DNA of 52,121 bases from the NCBI GenBank assembly GCA_021796415.1, contig JAJYJC010000005.1:1-52121 (forward strand), in the 5' to 3' direction. Both the position numbers and the translations under genes were made by a program. Below are positions 236 through 47,009 of this stretch, piece after piece (position 1 is the first letter of the stretch; each line of letters starts with the position of its first letter). The notes below the pieces were generated by a model. That model was not told where the DNA came from. It saw only the letters and a program-made list of their open reading frames with translations, and ran no database searches. The stretch comes from a bacterium. GTDB lineage: Bacteria > Patescibacteriota > CPR2 > UBA1875 > JAJYID01.

Positions 236-294
236 GTCATTCCCGCGCAGGCGGGAATCCGGGTTGAATAGATTCCCGCCTGCGCGGGAATGAC
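236..294. repeat. Dispersed palindromic repeat, perfect 24-bp arms
   Basis: Bases 236-259 and 271-294 are exact reverse complements (GTCATTCCCGCGCAGGCGGG and its mirror), separated by 11 bases. Shorter or diverged relatives of the GTCATTC...GAATGAC unit recur across the window, for example at 4808-4877, 37172-37215, 39937-40037, 41075-41136 and 45524-45585. Confidence 0.85.
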
Positions 295-370: not shown

Positions 371-2125
371 ATGAAAAATCTGAGAAAATTATATCAAATA
401 ATGAAATCGCTGAAGTGGGTGATGCTGTCACTCTCTGTTTTAGCTATTGTTGAGGCGCTAGTTGGAGCTGCTGCCCCCTTGGTTTACAAGCAAATCATAA
501 ATAACATTACAGGCATCGTTTCAAAATCTATCGGCAGGCAGCAAGGAATCGAAAACGGTATAGTAATCGGCGCCATTCTTTTCATAATGTTTTTAATTTA
601 CACATTTATAAATATCACGAAGAATTATTTGGCTCCCAAGCTTGAGGCGGGCGCTCAGAGCATACTTCGTGACAGGATTTTTAAGCATTTGACTGAGCTT
701 TCTCTTGATTTCTATGAAAAGGAGAGAGTAGGTTCGATGATGGCCACTTTTAACCGCGGTATCTCGAGAGCCGGTTCGCTGCTTAGCCAGATATCAAACT
801 GGGTTGCGGCTCAAATGATTCAAGCTTTATTTGCTCTTATAATGATGTTTATCATCGACCCTATTGCCGGTGGCATTATCCTTGTTTCAGCATGCATTTT
901 CCTCACAAGTACTATCAGGCTTGTCAAAAAGATCAATCCAATGCATCTAAAGGTCAATGAGGAATATGACAAGATCGGAGGCCAGACTTATGAAGTGGCT
1001 GCCGGCATACATACTGTCAAATCATTTGTTCAGGAAGACAACGAGACGAAACTTTTCAGGAAAAAGAACAGAAAATGGACAGACCTAAATGTAGCTCGCG
1101 GCAAGAAGAGGGCGGCGTTCGTCTTGGGCCGATACGGCGTCATGGACTTTGCCAGGGTGGTCATTTTGACCATGGCAGCATTCAAAGCGCTGTATGGGCA
1201 GATAACTCCGGGCGATGTCCTTCTCTACGTGACCTACATCAATTTTATCATCTGGCCGATTGGCAACTTGACATGGTTGTATGACGACGCTCAAGAAGCG
1301 ATGAAATCCATCGAAGATGTCTTGGATTTCCTTGAAATAAAGCCGAAGGTTGTCGACAAGGCAAATGCCAAGAGAATCAAAAAAGTAAAAGGAAAAGTTG
1401 AGTTCAAAAATGTTGGATTTGCCTACAATGGCGGGAGAAAAGTCCTGCATAATGTTTGTTTTGCGGCAGATCCCGGCCAGTCTGTAGCTCTTGTCGGGCC
1501 TTCAGGGACAGGCAAATCCACCATTGCCAAGCTTTTGGGCAGGTTCTACGACGTAAGCGAGGGACAGATTTTAATTGACGGCAAGGATATCCGTGATGTG
1601 ACGCAGAAATCCTTGAGGGATAATATCGGCGTCGTTCAGCAGGAAACCATGCTTTTTAATGATTCTGTCAAAGAGAACATAAAGTACGGCACCCCGAAAG
1701 CTTCAATGAAAGAAATTAAAGAAGCAGCAAAGGCTGCCAACATTCACACCTTTATCATGAGCTTGCCTCACGGTTATGACACGATTGTCGGTGAGAGGGG
1801 TATCAAGCTTTCCGGCGGCGAAAAGCAAAGAGTGGCCATAGCTCGCGCCCTTCTCAAAAATCCGCCGATTCTCATTCTGGATGAAGCCACTTCTCATCTT
1901 GACTCAAAATCCGAGCAGCTCGTTCAGGAAGCTATCTGGAGAGTGATCAAGGGCAGGACCACCATCATCATTGCCCATCGGCTAGCGACTGTTATGGAAG
2001 CTGACAAGATCATCGTTCTGGAAAAGGGGCGAATAGTTGAGGAAGATACTCACAAAGAACTCGTCGAAGCCGGCGGGCTGTATTCAGAATTGTTCAGAAT
2101 CCAGTCCGGTGCTATGCTTGAGTAA
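371..2125 (+). CDS. ABC exporter, fused membrane and ATPase half-transporter
   Basis: This 584-585 residue protein has the standard layout of a homodimeric type IV ABC exporter (MsbA/LmrA-like). The N-terminal half carries about six membrane helices, the first in residues 15-40. The C-terminal half is the nucleotide-binding domain, with Walker A GPSGTGKS near residue 377, signature LSGGEKQR near 481, Walker B ILILDEA near 501 and the switch histidine in AHRL near 537. GTG at 368 is directly followed by ATG at 371, and either could start. The substrate cannot be told from the sequence. Lipid or drug export is usual for the family. It appears to be a single-gene unit. Confidence 0.93.
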   Translation: MKNLRKLYQIMKSLKWVMLSLSVLAIVEALVGAAAPLVYKQIINNITGIVSKSIGRQQGIENGIVIGAILFIMFLIYTFINITKNYLAPKLEAGAQSILRDRIFKHLTELSLDFYEKERVGSMMATFNRGISRAGSLLSQISNWVAAQMIQALFALIMMFIIDPIAGGIILVSACIFLTSTIRLVKKINPMHLKVNEEYDKIGGQTYEVAAGIHTVKSFVQEDNETKLFRKKNRKWTDLNVARGKKRAAFVLGRYGVMDFARVVILTMAAFKALYGQITPGDVLLYVTYINFIIWPIGNLTWLYDDAQEAMKSIEDVLDFLEIKPKVVDKANAKRIKKVKGKVEFKNVGFAYNGGRKVLHNVCFAADPGQSVALVGPSGTGKSTIAKLLGRFYDVSEGQILIDGKDIRDVTQKSLRDNIGVVQQETMLFNDSVKENIKYGTPKASMKEIKEAAKAANIHTFIMSLPHGYDTIVGERGIKLSGGEKQRVAIARALLKNPPILILDEATSHLDSKSEQLVQEAIWRVIKGRTTIIIAHRLATVMEADKIIVLEKGRIVEEDTHKELVEAGGLYSELFRIQSGAMLE

Positions 2126-2132
2126 TTATAAT

Positions 2133-2170
2133 CATGTCAACACCTGGTGTCGACACCAGGTGTTGACATG
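2133..2170. repeat. Perfect 38-bp palindrome, upstream of transposase
   Basis: The sequence around CACCTGGTGTCGACACCAGG is a perfect 38-bp palindrome. A copy sharing the 22-bp core and the whole right arm lies at 2869-2902, directly after the transposase gene. Similarity continues past the arm in both copies (GACATGA followed within a few bases by TAGGA), so the repeated unit is a little longer than the palindrome. Confidence 0.9.
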
Positions 2171-2197
2171 AAAAACTAGGAAGTTTAATATCGGTGT

Positions 2198-2866
2198 ATG
2201 CCTTATAGAAAAACAAATTTTGTTAATGGTAATTTTTATCATGTTATCAATCGTGGTGTAAACCATGATGCGATTTTTAAGGATGAAAAAGATTACCGGC
2301 GTTTTTTAGACTCAACTAATTTTTCAAGATTTGATTCAGAAGTTCAGTTCTCCTATTTTAATAGGATTTCCGAAAAAGCAAGGGGTGAAATGTTGGAGAG
2401 ATTTGAAAAAACAAAAGGTCCTTTAGTTGATATTTTGGTTTTTAGTTTGATGCCAAACCATTACCATTACCTAATGAGACAACTTTTGGATGGTGGAGTG
2501 CAAACGTTTATGAGGAATTTTCAGAATAGCTATGCGAAATTCTTTAATATCAAACACGAAAGAATCGGCCCTTTGTTTCAATCAGCTTTTAGGGCTACAC
2601 CAATTGAAAGCGAGGAACAGCTAGTTCACACCTCAAGATATATTCATTTAAACCAAGTCTCCTCGTCACTAGTGGAAATAACAGATCTGGAAAAATATCC
2701 TTGGACTTCTTTTCCTGAATATTTAGGCAAAAAAAGATATAACTTCGTAAATACCAAACCAATATTAGAATTCTTTGATGGCGATAGGATTAAATATAAA
2801 AAATTTGTTTTTGAGCAAGCTGATAATCAGAAAGAATTGCAAATTATAAAAAATCAATTAAACTAA
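2198..2866 (+). CDS. REP-associated tyrosine transposase (Y1, TnpA_REP/RAYT family)
   Basis: This 222-residue protein has the single-stranded DNA transposase fold of the IS200/RAYT group. It opens with FYHVINRGVN. The HUH motif is seen as MPNHYHYL near residues 84-91, and the likely nucleophilic tyrosine is in NSYAKFFN near residue 112, followed by IGPLFQSAFRA. RAYT proteins nick and join single-stranded REP palindromes, and this gene lies between two copies of one palindrome (2133-2170 and 2869-2902), which fits. The start ATG at 2198 follows the left palindrome by 27 bases. It is intact, with no sign of decay. Confidence 0.92.
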   Translation: MPYRKTNFVNGNFYHVINRGVNHDAIFKDEKDYRRFLDSTNFSRFDSEVQFSYFNRISEKARGEMLERFEKTKGPLVDILVFSLMPNHYHYLMRQLLDGGVQTFMRNFQNSYAKFFNIKHERIGPLFQSAFRATPIESEEQLVHTSRYIHLNQVSSSLVEITDLEKYPWTSFPEYLGKKRYNFVNTKPILEFFDGDRIKYKKFVFEQADNQKELQIIKNQLN

Positions 2867-2868
2867 TA

Positions 2869-2902
2869 CTGACACCTGGTGTCGACACCAGGTGTTGACA
2901 TG
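2869..2902. repeat. Second copy of the transposase-flanking palindrome
   Basis: The 22-bp core CACCTGGTGTCGACACCAGG (plus two bases) at 2873-2894 and the right arm TTGACATG match the copy at 2133-2170. The left outer arm is diverged. It ends 11 bases before the rdgB start codon, so it forms most of that gene's leader. Confidence 0.88.
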
Positions 2903-2913
2903 AGAAAAATAGG

Positions 2914-37171: not shown

Positions 37172-37215
37172 GTCATTCTGGCCTGCCTTGCCGGCAGGCA
37201 GGCCCGTCCAGAATC
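37172..37215. repeat. Dispersed palindromic repeat copy
   Basis: GTCATTCTGGCCTGCCTTGC ... CCAGAATC; the inner part GCCTGCCTTGCCGGCAGGCA is itself an inverted repeat. Almost the same unit is found inside MurT at 39937. The preceding 37080-37170 stretch has AATTTTCAATTTTC-type repeats and no gene. Confidence 0.8.
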
Positions 37216-37327
37216 GGTTGAACAATGGCTTTGGTTGTGCTAATATGTTTTTAACAGAAGGAGGGCAAAGTTTTACTCCTTCTTTTGCGTCCTTAATCAG
37301 CCTAATTTTCCTGGAAAAGGAGGAGTA

Positions 37328-38936: not shown

Positions 38937-40451
38937 TTAAGTCCAGTAATTATCTAATATTTTTTCTTTGACCAGTAAATTTCTCAGCTCAAGCATGGCG
39001 GTGTAGGTGGGTAAAATATAGAGCTTCTCGTTCGGGCCGGTTTTTTTAATGGCCGTATCCAGCGCTTCAGAAATGTCTTTTTTTACCGTAATTATTTTTG
39101 ACGACACGTCGGCATATTTTAGCCTCAACCTGAGGTCTTCACTGCGGATGCCGCTGACGACGATGTTTGAGAAATAATTTTTGAAAACCTCGTACTCGCA
39201 GTCCCAAATCCAGGAAATGTCGGTGCCGTCGGCGAAGTTGTCGTTTAAAATCAAAAGCGCAGTTTTGGGTTTTCGGGTGGATGAGATTGCCTCTACAACT
39301 TGATTGAAGCCGGTTGGATTCTTAACTAAGTGGATAATGGCTTTTTTGCCGTTTTTCTCAAATGATTCCATACGGCCGAAAGCCGGCTTCAAGTGAGACA
39401 GGGTTTTAGCGATGGCGGCGCTTTTGACTTCCAGAAATGATGCTGCGGCCGTTGCTGCTAAAGCGTTGTAAATGTTGTAAAGTCCGACCATCGGCAGCTT
39501 CAAGTCGAAACTTTCGCGCTTGATAATCATTTTTGCGGTGATGCTTCCCGCTTCCAACCGGATATCCTTGGCGGAAATCTGAGGGTTTGGGCGCTTGAAT
39601 CCGCAGTTTGGACATTCATATACACCGATATGGCCGTAATATCTTCTCGCGTAATTTAGCTCGCTGCCGCAAACGAGGCAGTCCTTTGAGTCAATGGCAA
39701 GCTCGGAACTGGCCGAAATTCGCGTGTCTTGAACGCCGAAGTACAAGACATTGTCCTTGCCTTTTCCAAGCGAGGCAACCATGGGGTCGTCGGCGTTTAA
39801 GATCAGCTTGGCATCCGGCGCATCCTTGATCGCTTTCTCAATAATTGCGGCCGTTTTGTCGACCTCGCCGTAGCGGTCAAGCTGATCACGGAATATATTT
39901 GTAACCATAATCGCCTTGATTTGACTCTTGTTTTTCGTCATTCTGGCCTGCCTTGCCGGCAGGCAGGCTTGTCCAGAATCGGAATTTTTCTGGATTTCCG
40001 CCGGATGTTTATCCGACCTTTGGTGGGCGGGAATGACAGTGGATGGCCCATTTTGAATTTTAAATTTTAAATTTTTAATTAATTCCGGCATCGTTGCTTC
40101 GTCAACCTCATAAACGCCGATATCGGCTTTTAAACTGCCGAAAATACTAGCACGAGATATTAAGGCTGAGGCGATGCCGCGAGAAAGATTTGACCCGCCG
40201 GAGTTATTTAGGACTTTCATTCCAGCATTCTCCAGAATTTCAGTAATCATCTTTGCGGTTGTTGTTTTGCCGTTAGTGCCGGTAACCAAAATGACGCCTT
40301 TTGCCAAATTTTGGGTCAGCTTTGCATTAATTTCAGGATCAATCCGTTGGGCGATAACGCCGGGCAAAGCTCCGCCGCCGCCACGCCCAAAAGCGCGCGA
40401 CCAAAATCCCGCCTGCTTGGCAGCAAGAATAGCCAAATACTTTTTATCCAT
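38937..40451 (-). CDS. murT: Lipid II isoglutaminyl synthase, Mur-ligase subunit MurT
   Basis: This 504-residue protein has the Mur ligase ATP loop VILVTGTNGKTTTAKMITEI near residue 55, the MurT zinc ribbon CLVCGSELNYARRYYGH with YECPNCGF, and a C-terminal DUF1727 domain. It activates the D-Glu carboxylate for amidation. Between the helix PELIKNLKF and the conserved IMVTNIFRDQLDRYGE there is an extra segment that is simply the translation of a palindromic repeat (nt 39937-40037; VIPAHQRSDKHPAEIQKNSD, QACLPARQARMTKN). The frame is kept, so the enzyme may tolerate it. Confidence 0.93.
   Translation of the reverse strand: MDKKYLAILAAKQAGFWSRAFGRGGGGALPGVIAQRIDPEINAKLTQNLAKGVILVTGTNGKTTTAKMITEILENAGMKVLNNSGGSNLSRGIASALISRASIFGSLKADIGVYEVDEATMPELIKNLKFKIQNGPSTVIPAHQRSDKHPAEIQKNSDSGQACLPARQARMTKNKSQIKAIMVTNIFRDQLDRYGEVDKTAAIIEKAIKDAPDAKLILNADDPMVASLGKGKDNVLYFGVQDTRISASSELAIDSKDCLVCGSELNYARRYYGHIGVYECPNCGFKRPNPQISAKDIRLEAGSITAKMIIKRESFDLKLPMVGLYNIYNALAATAAASFLEVKSAAIAKTLSHLKPAFGRMESFEKNGKKAIIHLVKNPTGFNQVVEAISSTRKPKTALLILNDNFADGTDISWIWDCEYEVFKNYFSNIVVSGIRSEDLRLRLKYADVSSKIITVKKDISEALDTAIKKTGPNEKLYILPTYTAMLELRNLLVKEKILDNYWT
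39937..40037. repeat. Palindromic repeat inside the murT coding region
   Basis: The unit begins GTCATTCTGGCCTGCCTTGC and ends GGGCGGGAATGAC, matching intergenic copies at 37172 and 51296-51346. It is read in frame as about 33 residues of murT. Confidence 0.85.
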
Positions 40452-40638
40452 GGTTATATTTTAACACAAAATCTGTTATCATTCCGTAATTCCTGACTGT
40501 CCGGCAGGCGGGGATGCGGAATCCATGTAAATGTACCTGGATTCCCGATCAGAGCCGGGAATGGCAAACCTACTTTGCTGGACTGATTCAGAATAATAAA
40601 TGGGACGGATCTCAATCATTTCAATTTATGAATGGTGT

Positions 40639-40717
40639 ATTGGTACACTAAACTAGTTTAGTGTACCAATAGTGTAAATAGTCAAAAGCACTACGCTAAT
40701 ACAGTTTAGCGTAGTGC
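40639..40717. repeat. Two adjacent hairpins: 32-bp perfect palindrome and 12-bp stem
   Basis: ATTGGTACACTAAACTAG and its complement form a perfect 32-bp palindrome (40639-40670). GCACTACGCTAA (40688-40699) pairs with TTAGCGTAGTGC (40706-40717). A related hairpin (TTACACTAATA...TATTAGTGTA) lies at 38088-38112. The 300-base gap 40452-40749 holds these and a GGATTCCCG-type repeat (40500-40562), and no gene. Confidence 0.8.
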
Positions 40718-40749
40718 TTGCAATGTGTATTTAGGGCAGAATCGTATGC

Positions 40750-41745
40750 TTAGGTGCCCAAGAAATTTTTGACTGCTTTTTCTGCTTCGGATTTATTCTT
40801 TATCCAAGTCACATCTTTATTGCGACGAAGCCAGGTAAGCTGGCGTTTGGCAAGGTTGCGGTCGCCTTGTTTAAACTTCTCAGTCGCTTCTTTCAAACTA
40901 ATTTTTCCAGTTAGATATAGTCCAACTTGTTTGTAGCCTATACCGTTCATGCCAGGATCACCCAAAGAATATTTTTCGAGTAATTTTTTCACCTCGTCCA
41001 CAAATCCTTCCTTCATCCAGACATCGGCACGTTTGTTTATTCTGTCGTACAATTGCTTGCGGTCATTTCCCTTTGTCATTCTGGCTTGTCCAGAATCTGC
41101 TTTATTTTTCTGGATTCCCGCCTGCGCGGGAATGACAGAGGAGGGAGATTTCATCGCTTTAGCTCCAAAGCCTTCACAAAGAGCTAAATACAAAACATTT
41201 TTTGGTAAGGATTTCTTCTTTTCGCTGGCTTTTGGCGATCCGGTCTCATAGAAAATCTCCAAGGCTCTGATTAATCGGTGCCGGTTGTGGGAATCGATCA
41301 TTTTGGCTGTTCGGGAGTCGGCTTTTTGAAGCTCGGAAAAAATTTCCTCGGTTGATTTTTGGGCCAATCGCTCCCGCAGTTTCTGATTCGGCTTTGTATC
41401 GGACATTTCATAATTATAAATAACGGCATCGATATACATCATCGTTCCGCCGGCAATGATAGGGATTTTCCCGCGGCCGGCAATTTCCTTAATTTTTTCT
41501 TCTGCCAGCTTCTTGTACTCGGCTACCGAAAATTGCTCGTCGGGATCGGCAATGTCGAAAAGGTGATGCGGGATGCCTTCACGCTCTTCCGTTGTCGGTT
41601 TGCCGGTGCCCAGATCCATCTCTCTGTAAATGCTCCGGGAGTCGGCATTTATGACTTCGCCGCCGAGCTTCTTTGCCAAGTGAACCGCAAGCGCAGTCTT
41701 TCCGCTGGCCGTTGGTCCGGCAATGACTATAATTGGGTTCTTCAT
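40750..41745 (-). CDS. miaA: tRNA dimethylallyltransferase MiaA
   Basis: This 331-residue enzyme adds the dimethylallyl group to A37 of tRNAs reading UNN codons. Motifs: P-loop IVIAGPTASGKTALAVHLAK at residues 4-23, VINADSRSIYREMDLGTGKP, GIPHHLFDIADP, IIAGGTMMYIDAVI, and the C-terminal GIGYKQVGLYLTG. About 35 residues near position 205 (SSVIPAQAGIQKNKADSGQA and neighbours) are the translation of a palindromic repeat, inserted before DRKQLYDRINKRAD. miaB, which acts next in the pathway, is 650 bases away. Confidence 0.95.
   Translation of the reverse strand: MKNPIIVIAGPTASGKTALAVHLAKKLGGEVINADSRSIYREMDLGTGKPTTEEREGIPHHLFDIADPDEQFSVAEYKKLAEEKIKEIAGRGKIPIIAGGTMMYIDAVIYNYEMSDTKPNQKLRERLAQKSTEEIFSELQKADSRTAKMIDSHNRHRLIRALEIFYETGSPKASEKKKSLPKNVLYLALCEGFGAKAMKSPSSVIPAQAGIQKNKADSGQARMTKGNDRKQLYDRINKRADVWMKEGFVDEVKKLLEKYSLGDPGMNGIGYKQVGLYLTGKISLKEATEKFKQGDRNLAKRQLTWLRRNKDVTWIKNKSEAEKAVKNFLGT
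41075..41136. repeat. Palindromic repeat inside the miaA coding region
   Basis: GTCATTCTGGCTTGTCCAGA ... GGATTCCCGCCTGCGCGGGA ending ATGAC, a 62-bp unit like the intergenic copies at 236-294 and 45524-45585, read in frame by miaA. Confidence 0.87.
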
Positions 41746-42395: not shown

Positions 42396-43981
42396 ACAAC
42401 TCTTCCTTTTAGCATCCAAGCTTCAGAGCTAACAATCTCAACATCGACAAACTGGCCTAAGAGGCTAGTTTGTTTTCCGAGGTTCAACCTCACGTGAGGT
42501 TGAACCTCATTTTGCAACTCGACTATTTTATAATTATCGGTGCGGCCGTAGTATTTGCCGTTTTTCTCAGAGTCTATAAGCACCTTCATGATCATGCCGA
42601 CATACTTTTTGTTTTCTTTCTCAAGGTATTTCTTTAAAAGATTTGTTATTTCCTGCCATCTTTTTTCTTTTACTTTTTGAGGCACATTATCTTCCATTTT
42701 TGCTGCTCTCGTGCCTGATCGAGGAGAAAATTTGCCGATGTAAATCATTTCAAAACCGACATCGCGCACTACTTTCTTTGTCTCGTTAAAATCTTCTTCC
42801 GTCTCGCCCGGGAAGCCAACAATTACGTCAGTGGTAATGGCGACCTCAGGTATCGCTTTCTTAATTTTATTAACTAAACTAAAGTAGTTTTTCTGGGTGT
42901 AATGGCGATTCATAGCTTTCAAGATTTTATCGCTGCCGGACTGCAGGGGCAGGTGGATGTAATGAGGAAAATGCTCAGTTTTCGGAATAGCTTTGATTAG
43001 CTCGTCTGAGAAGTCTTTTGGGTGGTTAGAGTAGAAATAAACTCGGTATGTGCCGGGGATTTTATCAATTTTTTTAAGAAGTTTAGTGAAATCGGTATTA
43101 AGTGTTTTGCATTGAGAATCTGACCCAACATTGTCATTCTGAGCGACTTCACATAGTGACGAGTCGAAGAATCTCTTTTCTTCCTCATTTTTCTTTGAGA
43201 GATCCTTCGTTTCCTCAGGATTACTGCAAACATTATTCTTTTGTTTTTCAGTCCTTTTGTCCTTTTGTCCTTGGTAATTATGCGTATGGACAAAATCTGA
43301 GCCATAGGAATTCACATTTTGGCCAAGGAGGGTTATTTCTTTGTAGCCGGCAGACACCAGATTGCGGATCTCAGACAAAATCTCCGGCATTGGCCGCGAA
43401 ACTTCCCGCCCGCGAGTGTAGGGGACGGCGCAGTAGGTGCAAAAATTATTGCAGCCGGTAGAGATGGGCACGTAGGCAGAGAACGAAGATTCTCTTTTTG
43501 GAGTAATACTGAAATAATCTTCGTAATTTTCAATTTCCAATTCACAATTTTCAATCGAATCCCAATTTTCAATTTCCAAATCAGTTTTTTCGGGATTGGC
43601 TTTTTTGGGGTTTTGGTATTGTTTAGGATTTAGACTTTTGGATTTAGTGCTTGATTCCAAAAATTTTCTCAATTTTGGGAGATCTTTTATATCAAAAATC
43701 AGGTCAAAAAATTTGCTCATGGTAACTCTATCTTTATCTAAGACACAGCCGGAGAGAATAGTGACCAAACCTCCATTTTCCTTGCGTTTTTGCCACTCGC
43801 GAGCTTTGCCGTAAATGCGATCGATGGCGTGCTGGCGGACGCTGCAGGCGACAATAACTACAAAATCAGCATCAGATTCAGACGTCGTTTGTGTATGGCC
43901 GGCATCTTCAAAAACAGATGCGATCCTTTCCGCATCCGAGTGGTTCATAGCGCAACCCAAGGCCCAAATATAGTACTTCAT
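42392..43981 (-). CDS. miaB: tRNA methylthiotransferase MiaB
   Basis: This 529-residue radical-SAM enzyme adds the methylthio group to i6A37. It has the N-terminal UPF0004 domain (YIWALGCAMNHSDAERIASV), the cluster motif STGCNNFCTYCAVPYTRGRE, and a TRAM domain at the C-terminus. Length is about 80 above the usual 440-450. The excess lies in three repeat-derived segments: one rich in IEN near residues 130-165, one containing EEKRFFDSSLCEVAQNDN near 285-300, and a palindrome coding for EVQPHVRLNL near the end. All keep the frame. Confidence 0.94.
   Translation of the reverse strand: MKYYIWALGCAMNHSDAERIASVFEDAGHTQTTSESDADFVVIVACSVRQHAIDRIYGKAREWQKRKENGGLVTILSGCVLDKDRVTMSKFFDLIFDIKDLPKLRKFLESSTKSKSLNPKQYQNPKKANPEKTDLEIENWDSIENCELEIENYEDYFSITPKRESSFSAYVPISTGCNNFCTYCAVPYTRGREVSRPMPEILSEIRNLVSAGYKEITLLGQNVNSYGSDFVHTHNYQGQKDKRTEKQKNNVCSNPEETKDLSKKNEEEKRFFDSSLCEVAQNDNVGSDSQCKTLNTDFTKLLKKIDKIPGTYRVYFYSNHPKDFSDELIKAIPKTEHFPHYIHLPLQSGSDKILKAMNRHYTQKNYFSLVNKIKKAIPEVAITTDVIVGFPGETEEDFNETKKVVRDVGFEMIYIGKFSPRSGTRAAKMEDNVPQKVKEKRWQEITNLLKKYLEKENKKYVGMIMKVLIDSEKNGKYYGRTDNYKIVELQNEVQPHVRLNLGKQTSLLGQFVDVEIVSSEAWMLKGRVV
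42479..42508. repeat. Perfect 30-bp palindrome inside miaB
   Basis: GAGGTTCAACCTCAC and its exact complement GTGAGGTTGAACCTC are adjacent. It lies in the TRAM-domain coding part of miaB. Confidence 0.85.
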
Positions 43982-44323: not shown

Positions 44324-45528
44324 TATTTTTTCTTGCCCTGTTTATCGAAATCTTTCAGTGAATTTGCAATCGTTGGTACCAAGCCTTTGTCAAAGATAGA
44401 CGGAATAATTTTTTCTGCGGTTGGATTTTCTACCATTTTTGCGATGGCCTCAGAAACAGCGACCTTTATATCCATGGTTACTTTTTGAATGCCATTATCG
44501 AGCAACCCTCGGAAAAGGCCGGGGAAGACAAGTGCGTTATTGATCTGATTCGGAAAGTCGCTTCGGCCGGTGGCAATGACTTTGGCGCCACCTTTTCTCG
44601 CCTCATCCGGCATGATTTCGGGGATAGGGTTTGCCATGGCAAAGACTATCGGATCTGGGTTCATGGATTTTATGTCTTTTGTTGTAAACTGGCCGGGTTT
44701 TGAAACTCCTATCAAGACATCGGCGTCTTTAAGGGCCAGATTACAGCTTCCTTCCTTGCAAGGCGAGGCGCTTCTTGTGATTATGCTTTTTTTGTGTTCG
44801 CTTAAATCTTCTCTTCTTCCGTGAACTATTCCCCTAGAGTCGCACAGGCATAGGTTTTCAAAGCCGTAGTGAAAAAGTAAATTTGCTATGGCGATGCCTG
44901 CAGCTCCGGCGCCGGAGATAACAATTTTTACATTTTTGTCTTTGCCGACAACCTTTAAGGCATTGATCAAACCTGCCAAAACGACGATGGCGGTGCCGTG
45001 TTGATCGTCATGAAAGACCGGGATATCGAGATCTTCGGTTAATCTTTTTTCAATTTCAAAACAGCGGGGCGCCGAGATGTCTTCCAGATTAATCCCGCCA
45101 AAAGATGGTGCCATGGCTTTCACTATTCCAATAATTTCCTCAGTATCTTGGGTGTCTAGGCAAATCGGCACAGCGTTTATTCCGGCAAATTGGGCGAAAA
45201 TAGCTGCTTTGCCCTCCATCACCGGCATGGCAGCTTCGGGGCCGACGTTGCCAAGTCCAAGCACTGCGCTGCCGTCGGAAACAACCGGTACGGTATTTTG
45301 CCTTCCCGTCAAGACATTGACCTGCGATTTGTCTTTGGCGATGGCGTCTGACGCCTTGGCAACGCCCGGAGTATAGGCAACAGGAAGAGTCTCCTCATTT
45401 AGTTCGATTTTCGAACTGATGATGATTTTGCCCTTTAAATCCCTGTGCATCTTTATCGGATCTTCTAGATTCATTAATTCAATTCTACGCCTTGCATTAC
45501 GGAATTTCAAGATCTCCTTGGGCGTCAT
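44323..45528 (-). CDS. Malic enzyme (NAD(P)-dependent, decarboxylating)
   Basis: The 401-residue protein converts malate to pyruvate, CO2 and NAD(P)H. Motifs: KIIISSKIELNEETLPVAYT with PGVA, VSDGSAVLGLGNVGPEAAMP, FHDDQHGTAIVVLAGLINAL (metal/acid-base Asp pair), and the Rossmann loop IVISGAGAAGIAIANLL. It belongs to the short bacterial form without phosphotransacetylase domain. ATG 45528 lies inside a palindromic repeat; another candidate start is Met19 (MNLEDPIKMHRDLKGK). It may feed pyruvate and reducing power, together with the nearby glutamate dehydrogenase. Confidence 0.94.
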   Translation of the reverse strand: MTPKEILKFRNARRRIELMNLEDPIKMHRDLKGKIIISSKIELNEETLPVAYTPGVAKASDAIAKDKSQVNVLTGRQNTVPVVSDGSAVLGLGNVGPEAAMPVMEGKAAIFAQFAGINAVPICLDTQDTEEIIGIVKAMAPSFGGINLEDISAPRCFEIEKRLTEDLDIPVFHDDQHGTAIVVLAGLINALKVVGKDKNVKIVISGAGAAGIAIANLLFHYGFENLCLCDSRGIVHGRREDLSEHKKSIITRSASPCKEGSCNLALKDADVLIGVSKPGQFTTKDIKSMNPDPIVFAMANPIPEIMPDEARKGGAKVIATGRSDFPNQINNALVFPGLFRGLLDNGIQKVTMDIKVAVSEAIAKMVENPTAEKIIPSIFDKGLVPTIANSLKDFDKQGKKK

Positions 45529-45585
45529 TCTGGCTTGGCCAGAATCTGGCTCTTGAAAATTGGATTCTGGCCAAGCCAGAATGAC
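45524..45585. repeat. Palindromic repeat covering the malic enzyme start
   Basis: GTCATTCTGGCTTGGCCAGA (45524-) and TGGATTCTGGCCAAGCCAGA, ATGAC (to 45585) are inverted arms. The minus-strand ATG of the malic enzyme (45528-45526) is part of the arm CCAGAATGAC. Confidence 0.85.
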
Positions 45586-46905: not shown

Positions 46906-47009
46906 GCTTAAGTGTCATTCTGAACTTGATTCAGAATCTATACCAATAAATTCTGGATTCCGGATCAACTGATTATAATTTAAATGAATAGTCCGGAATG
47001 ACAAGAATC

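What the first reader, a model, noticed from the sequence alone, without database searches (positions are those of the whole stretch)
39937..41136. Palindromic repeats read in frame inside murT and miaA
Units that are intergenic elsewhere lie in the coding region of two essential-type enzymes without breaking the frame. They add about 33 and 35 residues, just before conserved motifs (IMVTNIFRDQLDRYGE; DRKQLYDRIN). This is the behaviour of Rickettsia palindromic elements and is little described outside that group.
Basis: partly seen in the sequence, partly recalled or inferred. Interest (0 to 1): 0.7.

Follow-up and report, generated by a model that had tools for sequence, protein, structure and literature searches.

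The report
Palindromic DNA repeats inside bacterial proteins
In this small uncultured bacterium, short palindromic repeats that are normally found between genes also sit inside more than 30 recognisable genes, including murT and miaA, where they are read as extra amino acids in flexible loops without breaking the protein; the repeats belong to a known kind also seen in Rickettsia.

Summary
murT and miaA each contain a palindromic repeat dimer (39937-40037, 101 bp; 41075-41136, 62 bp) read in frame. Against relatives without it, MurT gains about 47 residues and MiaA 36; only 34 and 21 of these are the unit itself. The miaA insert is missing from the closest relative with the gene (75% identical). 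In murT the same-genus relative carries different repeat DNA at the same site. Both inserts are modelled as low-confidence loops.

The unit has the features of CGTC-tagged REP repeats (Di Nocera 2013), the superfamily to which that paper assigns Rickettsia RPE-4 and RPE-6. Its two main arms occur about 100 times each in the 0.9-Mb genome. About one fifth of the clusters lie inside genes: over 30 recognisable proteins. Of about 60 units flanked by homologous protein in three genomes, none breaks a frame. One open frame of the unit is never used in recognised genes. Both facts indicate real translation under selection.

Unexpected: inserts sharing a site in two species differ far less at synonymous positions (0.16-0.19) than their host genes (0.77).

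So this is a new, unusually dense case of a known phenomenon, with one unexplained feature.

The parts
38937..40451 (-). murT (lipid II isoglutaminyl synthase subunit), 504 aa
   Evidence: Pfam MurT_C 1.1e-36; NCBIfam NF045635 9.4e-87, below its cut-off
39921..40061 (-). net insert in MurT, about residues 131-177, absent in other genera; modelled as a disordered loop
   Evidence: tblastn pieces 3-130 and 178-504 abut in G006, 3-129 and 179-504 in G004; alignment; pLDDT below 50 over 136-141 and 143-172
39937..40037 (.). palindromic repeat unit (CGTC-type REP dimer with extra inner palindromes) inside murT
40049..40076 (.). AT-rich repeat next to the unit, read as NLKFKIQNG in MurT
   Evidence: the repeat finder family D1; matched by NLQFTIQNG in G002
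40750..41745 (-). miaA (tRNA dimethylallyltransferase), 331 aa
   Evidence: Pfam IPPT 1.2e-74; TIGR00174 2.8e-83
41071..41178 (-). net 36-residue insert in MiaA (about residues 190-225), absent in all 13 relatives aligned
   Evidence: pLDDT about 28 in the middle of the insert
41075..41136 (.). palindromic repeat unit (CGTC-type REP heterodimer) inside miaA
42392..43981 (-). miaB (tRNA methylthiotransferase), 529 aa, third gene of the cluster with in-frame repeats
   Evidence: TIGR01574 2.2e-116; alignment
43133..43173 (.). palindromic unit inside miaB (RFFDSSLCEVAQND)
   Evidence: relatives carry other units at the same site
43525..43591 (.). AT-rich repeats inside miaB (LEIENWDSIENCELEIENYE)
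   Evidence: the repeat finder families D1 and D2
45524..45585 (.). intergenic copy, near-perfect homodimer that folds as one hairpin, upstream of a gene start
236..294 (.). copy of the unit outside the finding
46914..47002 (.). copy of the unit outside the finding
37172..37217 (.). half-unit near-identical (96%) to the murT arm, in the region upstream of comM
   Evidence: the repeat finder family D11

Best explanation
The inserts are copies of a CGTC-tagged REP repeat (paired hairpins with GTCATTC at the outer ends) that landed in murT and miaA, kept the reading frame, and are translated as extra flexible surface loops in proteins that stay functional. Shown: the repeat family, absence of the insert in relatives, intact frames and conserved motifs on both sides, loop placement in models, more than 30 similarly tagged genes, no broken gene found. 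Inferred: that copies move by transposition or recombination, that frame-breaking insertions were removed by selection, and that the peptides mostly do nothing useful. The agent that moves them is unknown; the genome's three RAYT-like transposases are flanked by other palindromes.
For: Absence in relatives: MiaA of G002 (75% identical) aligns on both sides of the insert with 3 bp between the pieces; 13 relatives lack it, as do six viral-contig homologues; MurT pieces abut in G004 and G006. Family: of 168 half-units, 155 are tagged TGTC or CGTC, 161 have 7-8 bp stems, 135 have 4-5 nt loops, 110 have tail CCA or CTA, and pairs with tags outside number 27 against 3, matching PMC3733652. Scale: 33 named or tentatively named proteins with units, 31 of them with an NCBIfam hit at 1e-10 or better. 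Frame: no gene with a frameshift or stop at the unit among about 60 units flanked by homologous protein in G000, G002 and G003; the flagged exceptions lie upstream of start codons or have their stops outside the unit. Frame choice in G000 genes: forward units use VIP 14, HS 11 and SF 0 apart from one native TsaB motif; reverse units use ND 17 and MT 13. Structure: MurT 143-172 and MiaA 197-225 have pLDDT below 50 between well-modelled elements.
Against: No transcript or protein data. The census covers 434 kb around known arms, not the whole genome. The unit alone does not account for the full net inserts. Inserts at shared sites are too conserved at synonymous positions for simple neutral passengers.
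Confidence: 0.86

Rival explanations
1. The inserts are not translated: the hairpin makes the ribosome skip the element, or the element is removed from the RNA.
For: The units are hairpins and lie in genes whose products should not tolerate damage.
Against: Skipping would not need the frame to be kept, stops to be absent or certain peptides to be preferred; yet no unit with homologous protein on both sides breaks a frame and one open frame is avoided.
Confidence: 0.03
2. The insert residues are an old part of the protein that only resembles repeat DNA.
For: MurT of the same-genus relative G002 also has extra residues at this site.
Against: MiaA insert absent in all relatives aligned; MurT insert absent in other genera; the G002 residues come from different repeat DNA.
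Confidence: 0.02
3. The inserts have been taken into use: they alter activity, binding or regulation of the tagged enzymes, which explains their hold in tRNA-modification and DNA-repair genes and their conservation between genera.
For: Same-site inserts in UvrB, TlyA, Elp3, PcrA and others in two genera or species; REP-derived parts have pN 0.02; Di Nocera 2013 noted repair genes as frequent targets.
Against: Inserts are modelled without order; many sites are empty in relatives; units at shared sites often differ; synonymous sites are conserved too, which selection on the peptide would not produce.
Confidence: 0.1
4. The copies are assembly errors or pseudogenes.
For: Repeats break contigs: G001's reading frame and contig end at the UvrB insert site.
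Against: Similar inserts occur in separately assembled genomes (G002, G003, G005), one of them with 7 contigs; host genes are intact at full length.
Confidence: 0.03

Closest known systems
CGTC-tagged REP superfamily (Di Nocera et al. 2013, PMC3733652)
   Same: C/TGTC tag, stem starting ATTC, 4-5 nt loop, CCA-like tail, paired units with tags outside, some copies inside genes in frame, repair genes among targets, no transposase linked to them.
   Different: Here in what I infer to be Patescibacteria, not among the five phyla listed for CGTC repeats; a third of the stems are 7 bp and tail CTA is as common as CCA; often joined to an AT-rich repeat inside genes.
Rickettsia palindromic elements RPE-4, RPE-6 and RPE-1 (Ogata 2000, 2002; Claverie and Ogata 2003, known here through PMC3733652 and PMC10969869)
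   Same: Repeats read in frame inside unrelated housekeeping genes; RPE-4 and RPE-6 are assigned to the same superfamily by PMC3733652.
   Different: RPE-1 is a longer palindrome outside this superfamily; hosts are unrelated; no direct sequence comparison with RPE consensus was run.
REPs moved by RAYT transposases (REPtrons)
   Same: Short paired palindromes; the genome does hold three Y1 transposases of this kind.
   Different: These transposases are flanked by other palindromes, not by this unit.

Membership tests
CGTC-tagged REP | unpaired CGTC (or TGTC, CCTC) tag at one end | tested here: met
   TGTC 117 and CGTC 38 of 168 half-units; the search was anchored on GTC, so only the first base was free
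CGTC-tagged REP | stem of 8-9 bp beginning with A and T | tested here: met
   8 bp in 106, 7 bp in 55, 9 bp in 2; all start ATTC by the anchor
CGTC-tagged REP | loop of 4-5 nt | tested here: met
   135 of 168
CGTC-tagged REP | short unpaired tail, mostly CCA | tested here: inconclusive
   CCA 54 and CTA 56 of 168
CGTC-tagged REP | mostly paired in one inverted arrangement | tested here: met
   27 pairs with tags outside, 3 with tags inside, 5 same direction; that this equals the paper's 'HH' is my reading
CGTC-tagged REP | no associated transposase gene | tested here: met
   three Y1 transposases in the genome carry other palindromes
Rickettsia palindromic elements | in-frame inside functional, unrelated genes | tested here: met
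   function is inferred from intact conserved sequence
Rickettsia palindromic elements | sequence similarity to RPE-4 or RPE-6 consensus | not tested
   relation taken from PMC3733652 only
Rickettsia palindromic elements | expression of the tagged protein shown | not testable with these tools
   no expression data for this organism
RAYT-mobilised REP | unit flanks a RAYT gene in the genome | tested here: not met

The most novel reading that the evidence does not exclude
The composite inserts (AT-rich repeat plus REP unit) are gained or exchanged repeatedly at the same codon of the same gene in different lineages, in a homing-like way, possibly by homologous recombination during DNA uptake. Support: at sites shared by two species the insert's synonymous divergence is 0.16-0.19 against 0.77 in the host genes, lower than every equal-sized window elsewhere in five genes, with an abrupt edge; the non-palindromic part is as conserved as the palindromic part; the UvrB insert is present in G000 and in G003 of another genus but absent from G002 of the same genus. 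A DNA-level constraint on the repeat with loss in G002 is not excluded.
Probability: 0.2. Interest if true: 0.75.

Novelty: new member of a known kind. Interest (0 to 1): 0.5.

Why it matters
It extends protein-coding palindromic repeats to a deep, uncultured bacterial lineage at high density, in tRNA-modification, DNA-repair and cell-wall genes. With several related genomes, empty and filled sites can be compared gene by gene, which makes old questions testable: how proteins tolerate random inserts, which peptides are allowed (one open frame is avoided), and what moves CGTC repeats, for which no transposase is known. The low synonymous divergence of shared inserts is a concrete puzzle for anyone studying repeat mobility or gene exchange in these bacteria.

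Tried and rejected
RAYT as mover of this unit: rejected because the three RAYT-like genes carry other palindromes. Frame-broken genes: seven ORF-level candidates and four homology-level flags were read; none is a gene broken at a unit. Concerted evolution within each genome as cause of the low divergence: not favoured for UvrB and PcrA, where the orthologous insert (94%, 92%) is closer than any paralogue over similar length (up to about 86%), but open for Elp3 and the hydrogenase gene, where paralogues match as well over parts. Hairpin constraint alone: not enough, since the AT-rich part is as conserved.

Full report
What was claimed.

What is there. MurT (38937-40451, minus) and MiaA (40750-41745, minus) are confirmed by Pfam and NCBIfam. 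The murT unit is 39937-40037 and the miaA unit 41075-41136. Both read through without a stop. The arm pattern is far above chance in the window (14 against 0.24) and in the genome (102 and 111 hits for two arms against 1 and 0 for reversed controls). Across 116 genomes the count is highest in the same genus (204-266 sites per genome against 1-2 controls), intermediate in parts of the family, order and class, and near background in most of the phylum, with a few separate peaks.

Empty sites. MiaA of G002 (same genus, 75% identical) aligns on both sides of the insert with 3 bp between the pieces. The insert is 36 residues and absent from all 13 relatives aligned and from six homologues in viral contigs. 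MurT lacks about 47 residues at this site in other genera. G002 has extra residues at the same MurT site made of other repeat DNA, and a second insert further on, where G005 of another genus also has a different one. MiaB carries different units at two sites in G000, G001, G002, G003, G005 and probably others. So sites are used repeatedly.

Genome scale. In 434 kb of stretches around the arms I found about 200 unit clusters. Some 62 have a spanning open frame. Manual naming plus NCBIfam gives 33 proteins with units, 31 of them with a hit at 1e-10 or better, among them IlvE, MtaB, DusB, LepA, PheA, GatB, TsaB, TsaE, TsaD, YchF, TlyA, a family-4 uracil-DNA glycosylase, PolA, Tgt, Elp3, two PcrA-like helicases, QueA, RNase HI, RsmI, PrmC, UvrB, MurT, MiaA and MiaB. 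A few units near N-termini may lie upstream of the true start. The list is rich in tRNA modification and DNA repair; no enrichment test was run.

Frame. A homology scan of G000, G002 and G003 found about 60 units with homologous protein on both sides, and none with a stop or frameshift at the unit. The four flags were read by eye: two lie upstream of start codons, and in the others the stops lie outside the unit, before the start. Of the five open frames of the unit, four are used in recognised G000 genes and one (SFPRRRES type) is not: 0 of 25 forward units, (2/3)^25 = 4e-5 if the three frames were equal. This treats units as independent, and it leaves out one native TsaB motif that matches by chance. 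In the three-genome set three more SF cases occur in two short ORFs (134 and 188 aa) that I did not verify. The frame record argues for real translation and against ribosomal skipping.

Structure. The MurT model (mean pLDDT 84.9) puts the insert between helix 118-128 and strand 178-183, with pLDDT below 50 at 143-172; it matches solved MurT structures. The MiaA model (mean 80.9, only seven sequences) puts it between strand 184-189 and helix 225-245, with pLDDT about 28; it matches solved MiaA structures. Low confidence is read here as disorder, which is an inference. Whether the MiaA loop comes near bound tRNA was not examined.

What it belongs to. Of 168 half-units, 155 are tagged TGTC or CGTC, stems are 7-8 bp, loops mostly 4-5 nt, tails mostly CCA or CTA, and pairs have tags outside. 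This fits the CGTC-tagged REP superfamily of Di Nocera et al. 2013, which lists dRS3 of Neisseria and RPE-4 and RPE-6 of Rickettsia as members and reports intragenic copies. The genome's three Y1 (RAYT-like) transposases are flanked by other palindromes, in line with that paper's statement that CGTC repeats lack a dedicated transposase.

The unexplained part. Of 25 unit sites in G000 genes comparable with G003, 10 are shared, 9 are empty and 6 hold no recognisable unit; these counts include two matches that are probably native protein sequence. At shared sites with similar inserts (UvrB, TlyA, Elp3, PcrA with G003; hydrogenase with G002), synonymous divergence in the insert is below that of every equal-sized window elsewhere in the same gene (0 of 121, 41, 92, 76 and 72) and is mostly high again just outside it. 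Pooled over seven genes it is 0.19 for the AT-rich part and 0.16 for the REP part against 0.77 for the host genes. These genes were picked because their inserts look alike, so the test shows that such pairs exist, not how common they are; overlapping windows are not independent. UvrB's insert is absent from G002, which is closer to G000 than G003 is. Either the repeat is constrained as DNA, or it was acquired again at the same codon. I cannot decide between them.

Verdict. It is a new, dense instance of a described phenomenon in a lineage where I found no earlier report in the open-access library searched.

Noticed in passing
window 2124-2910: A RAYT-like Y1 transposase gene (2387-2647 match) flanked by its own palindrome (TGTCAACACCTGGTGTCGACACCAGGTGTTGACA), unrelated to the unit studied.
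   Followed up: partly
L176 (own genome C43) and L301 (G002 C30): PcrA-like helicases of G000 and G002 share a large in-frame insertion after CVVGDDWQC ending in HNS, which looks like an intein; G003 lacks it.
   Followed up: no
L188 (own genome C7:7000-9704), about 1140-2040: A RAYT-like gene flanked by GCAAGGGTCTGACCCTTGC palindromes lies between two similar copies of about 60 bp that resemble the 3' end of the neighbouring gene.
   Followed up: no
window 40639-40721: Two further near-perfect palindromes between murT and miaA (TTGGTACACTAAACTAGTTTAGTGTACCAA and AAGCACTACGCTAATACAGTTTAGCGTAGTGCTT) next to a degenerate copy of the unit at about 40480-40565.
   Followed up: no
L111 (G001 C57), MiaB: G001 MiaB resembles G003 at the second insert and G000 after it, which suggests recombination or a chimeric assembly.
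   Followed up: no
window 43525-43591 and many loci: An AT-rich repeat (AATTTCC type) is often joined to the palindromic unit inside genes and read in frame as NFQFPISNFQS-like peptides.
   Followed up: partly
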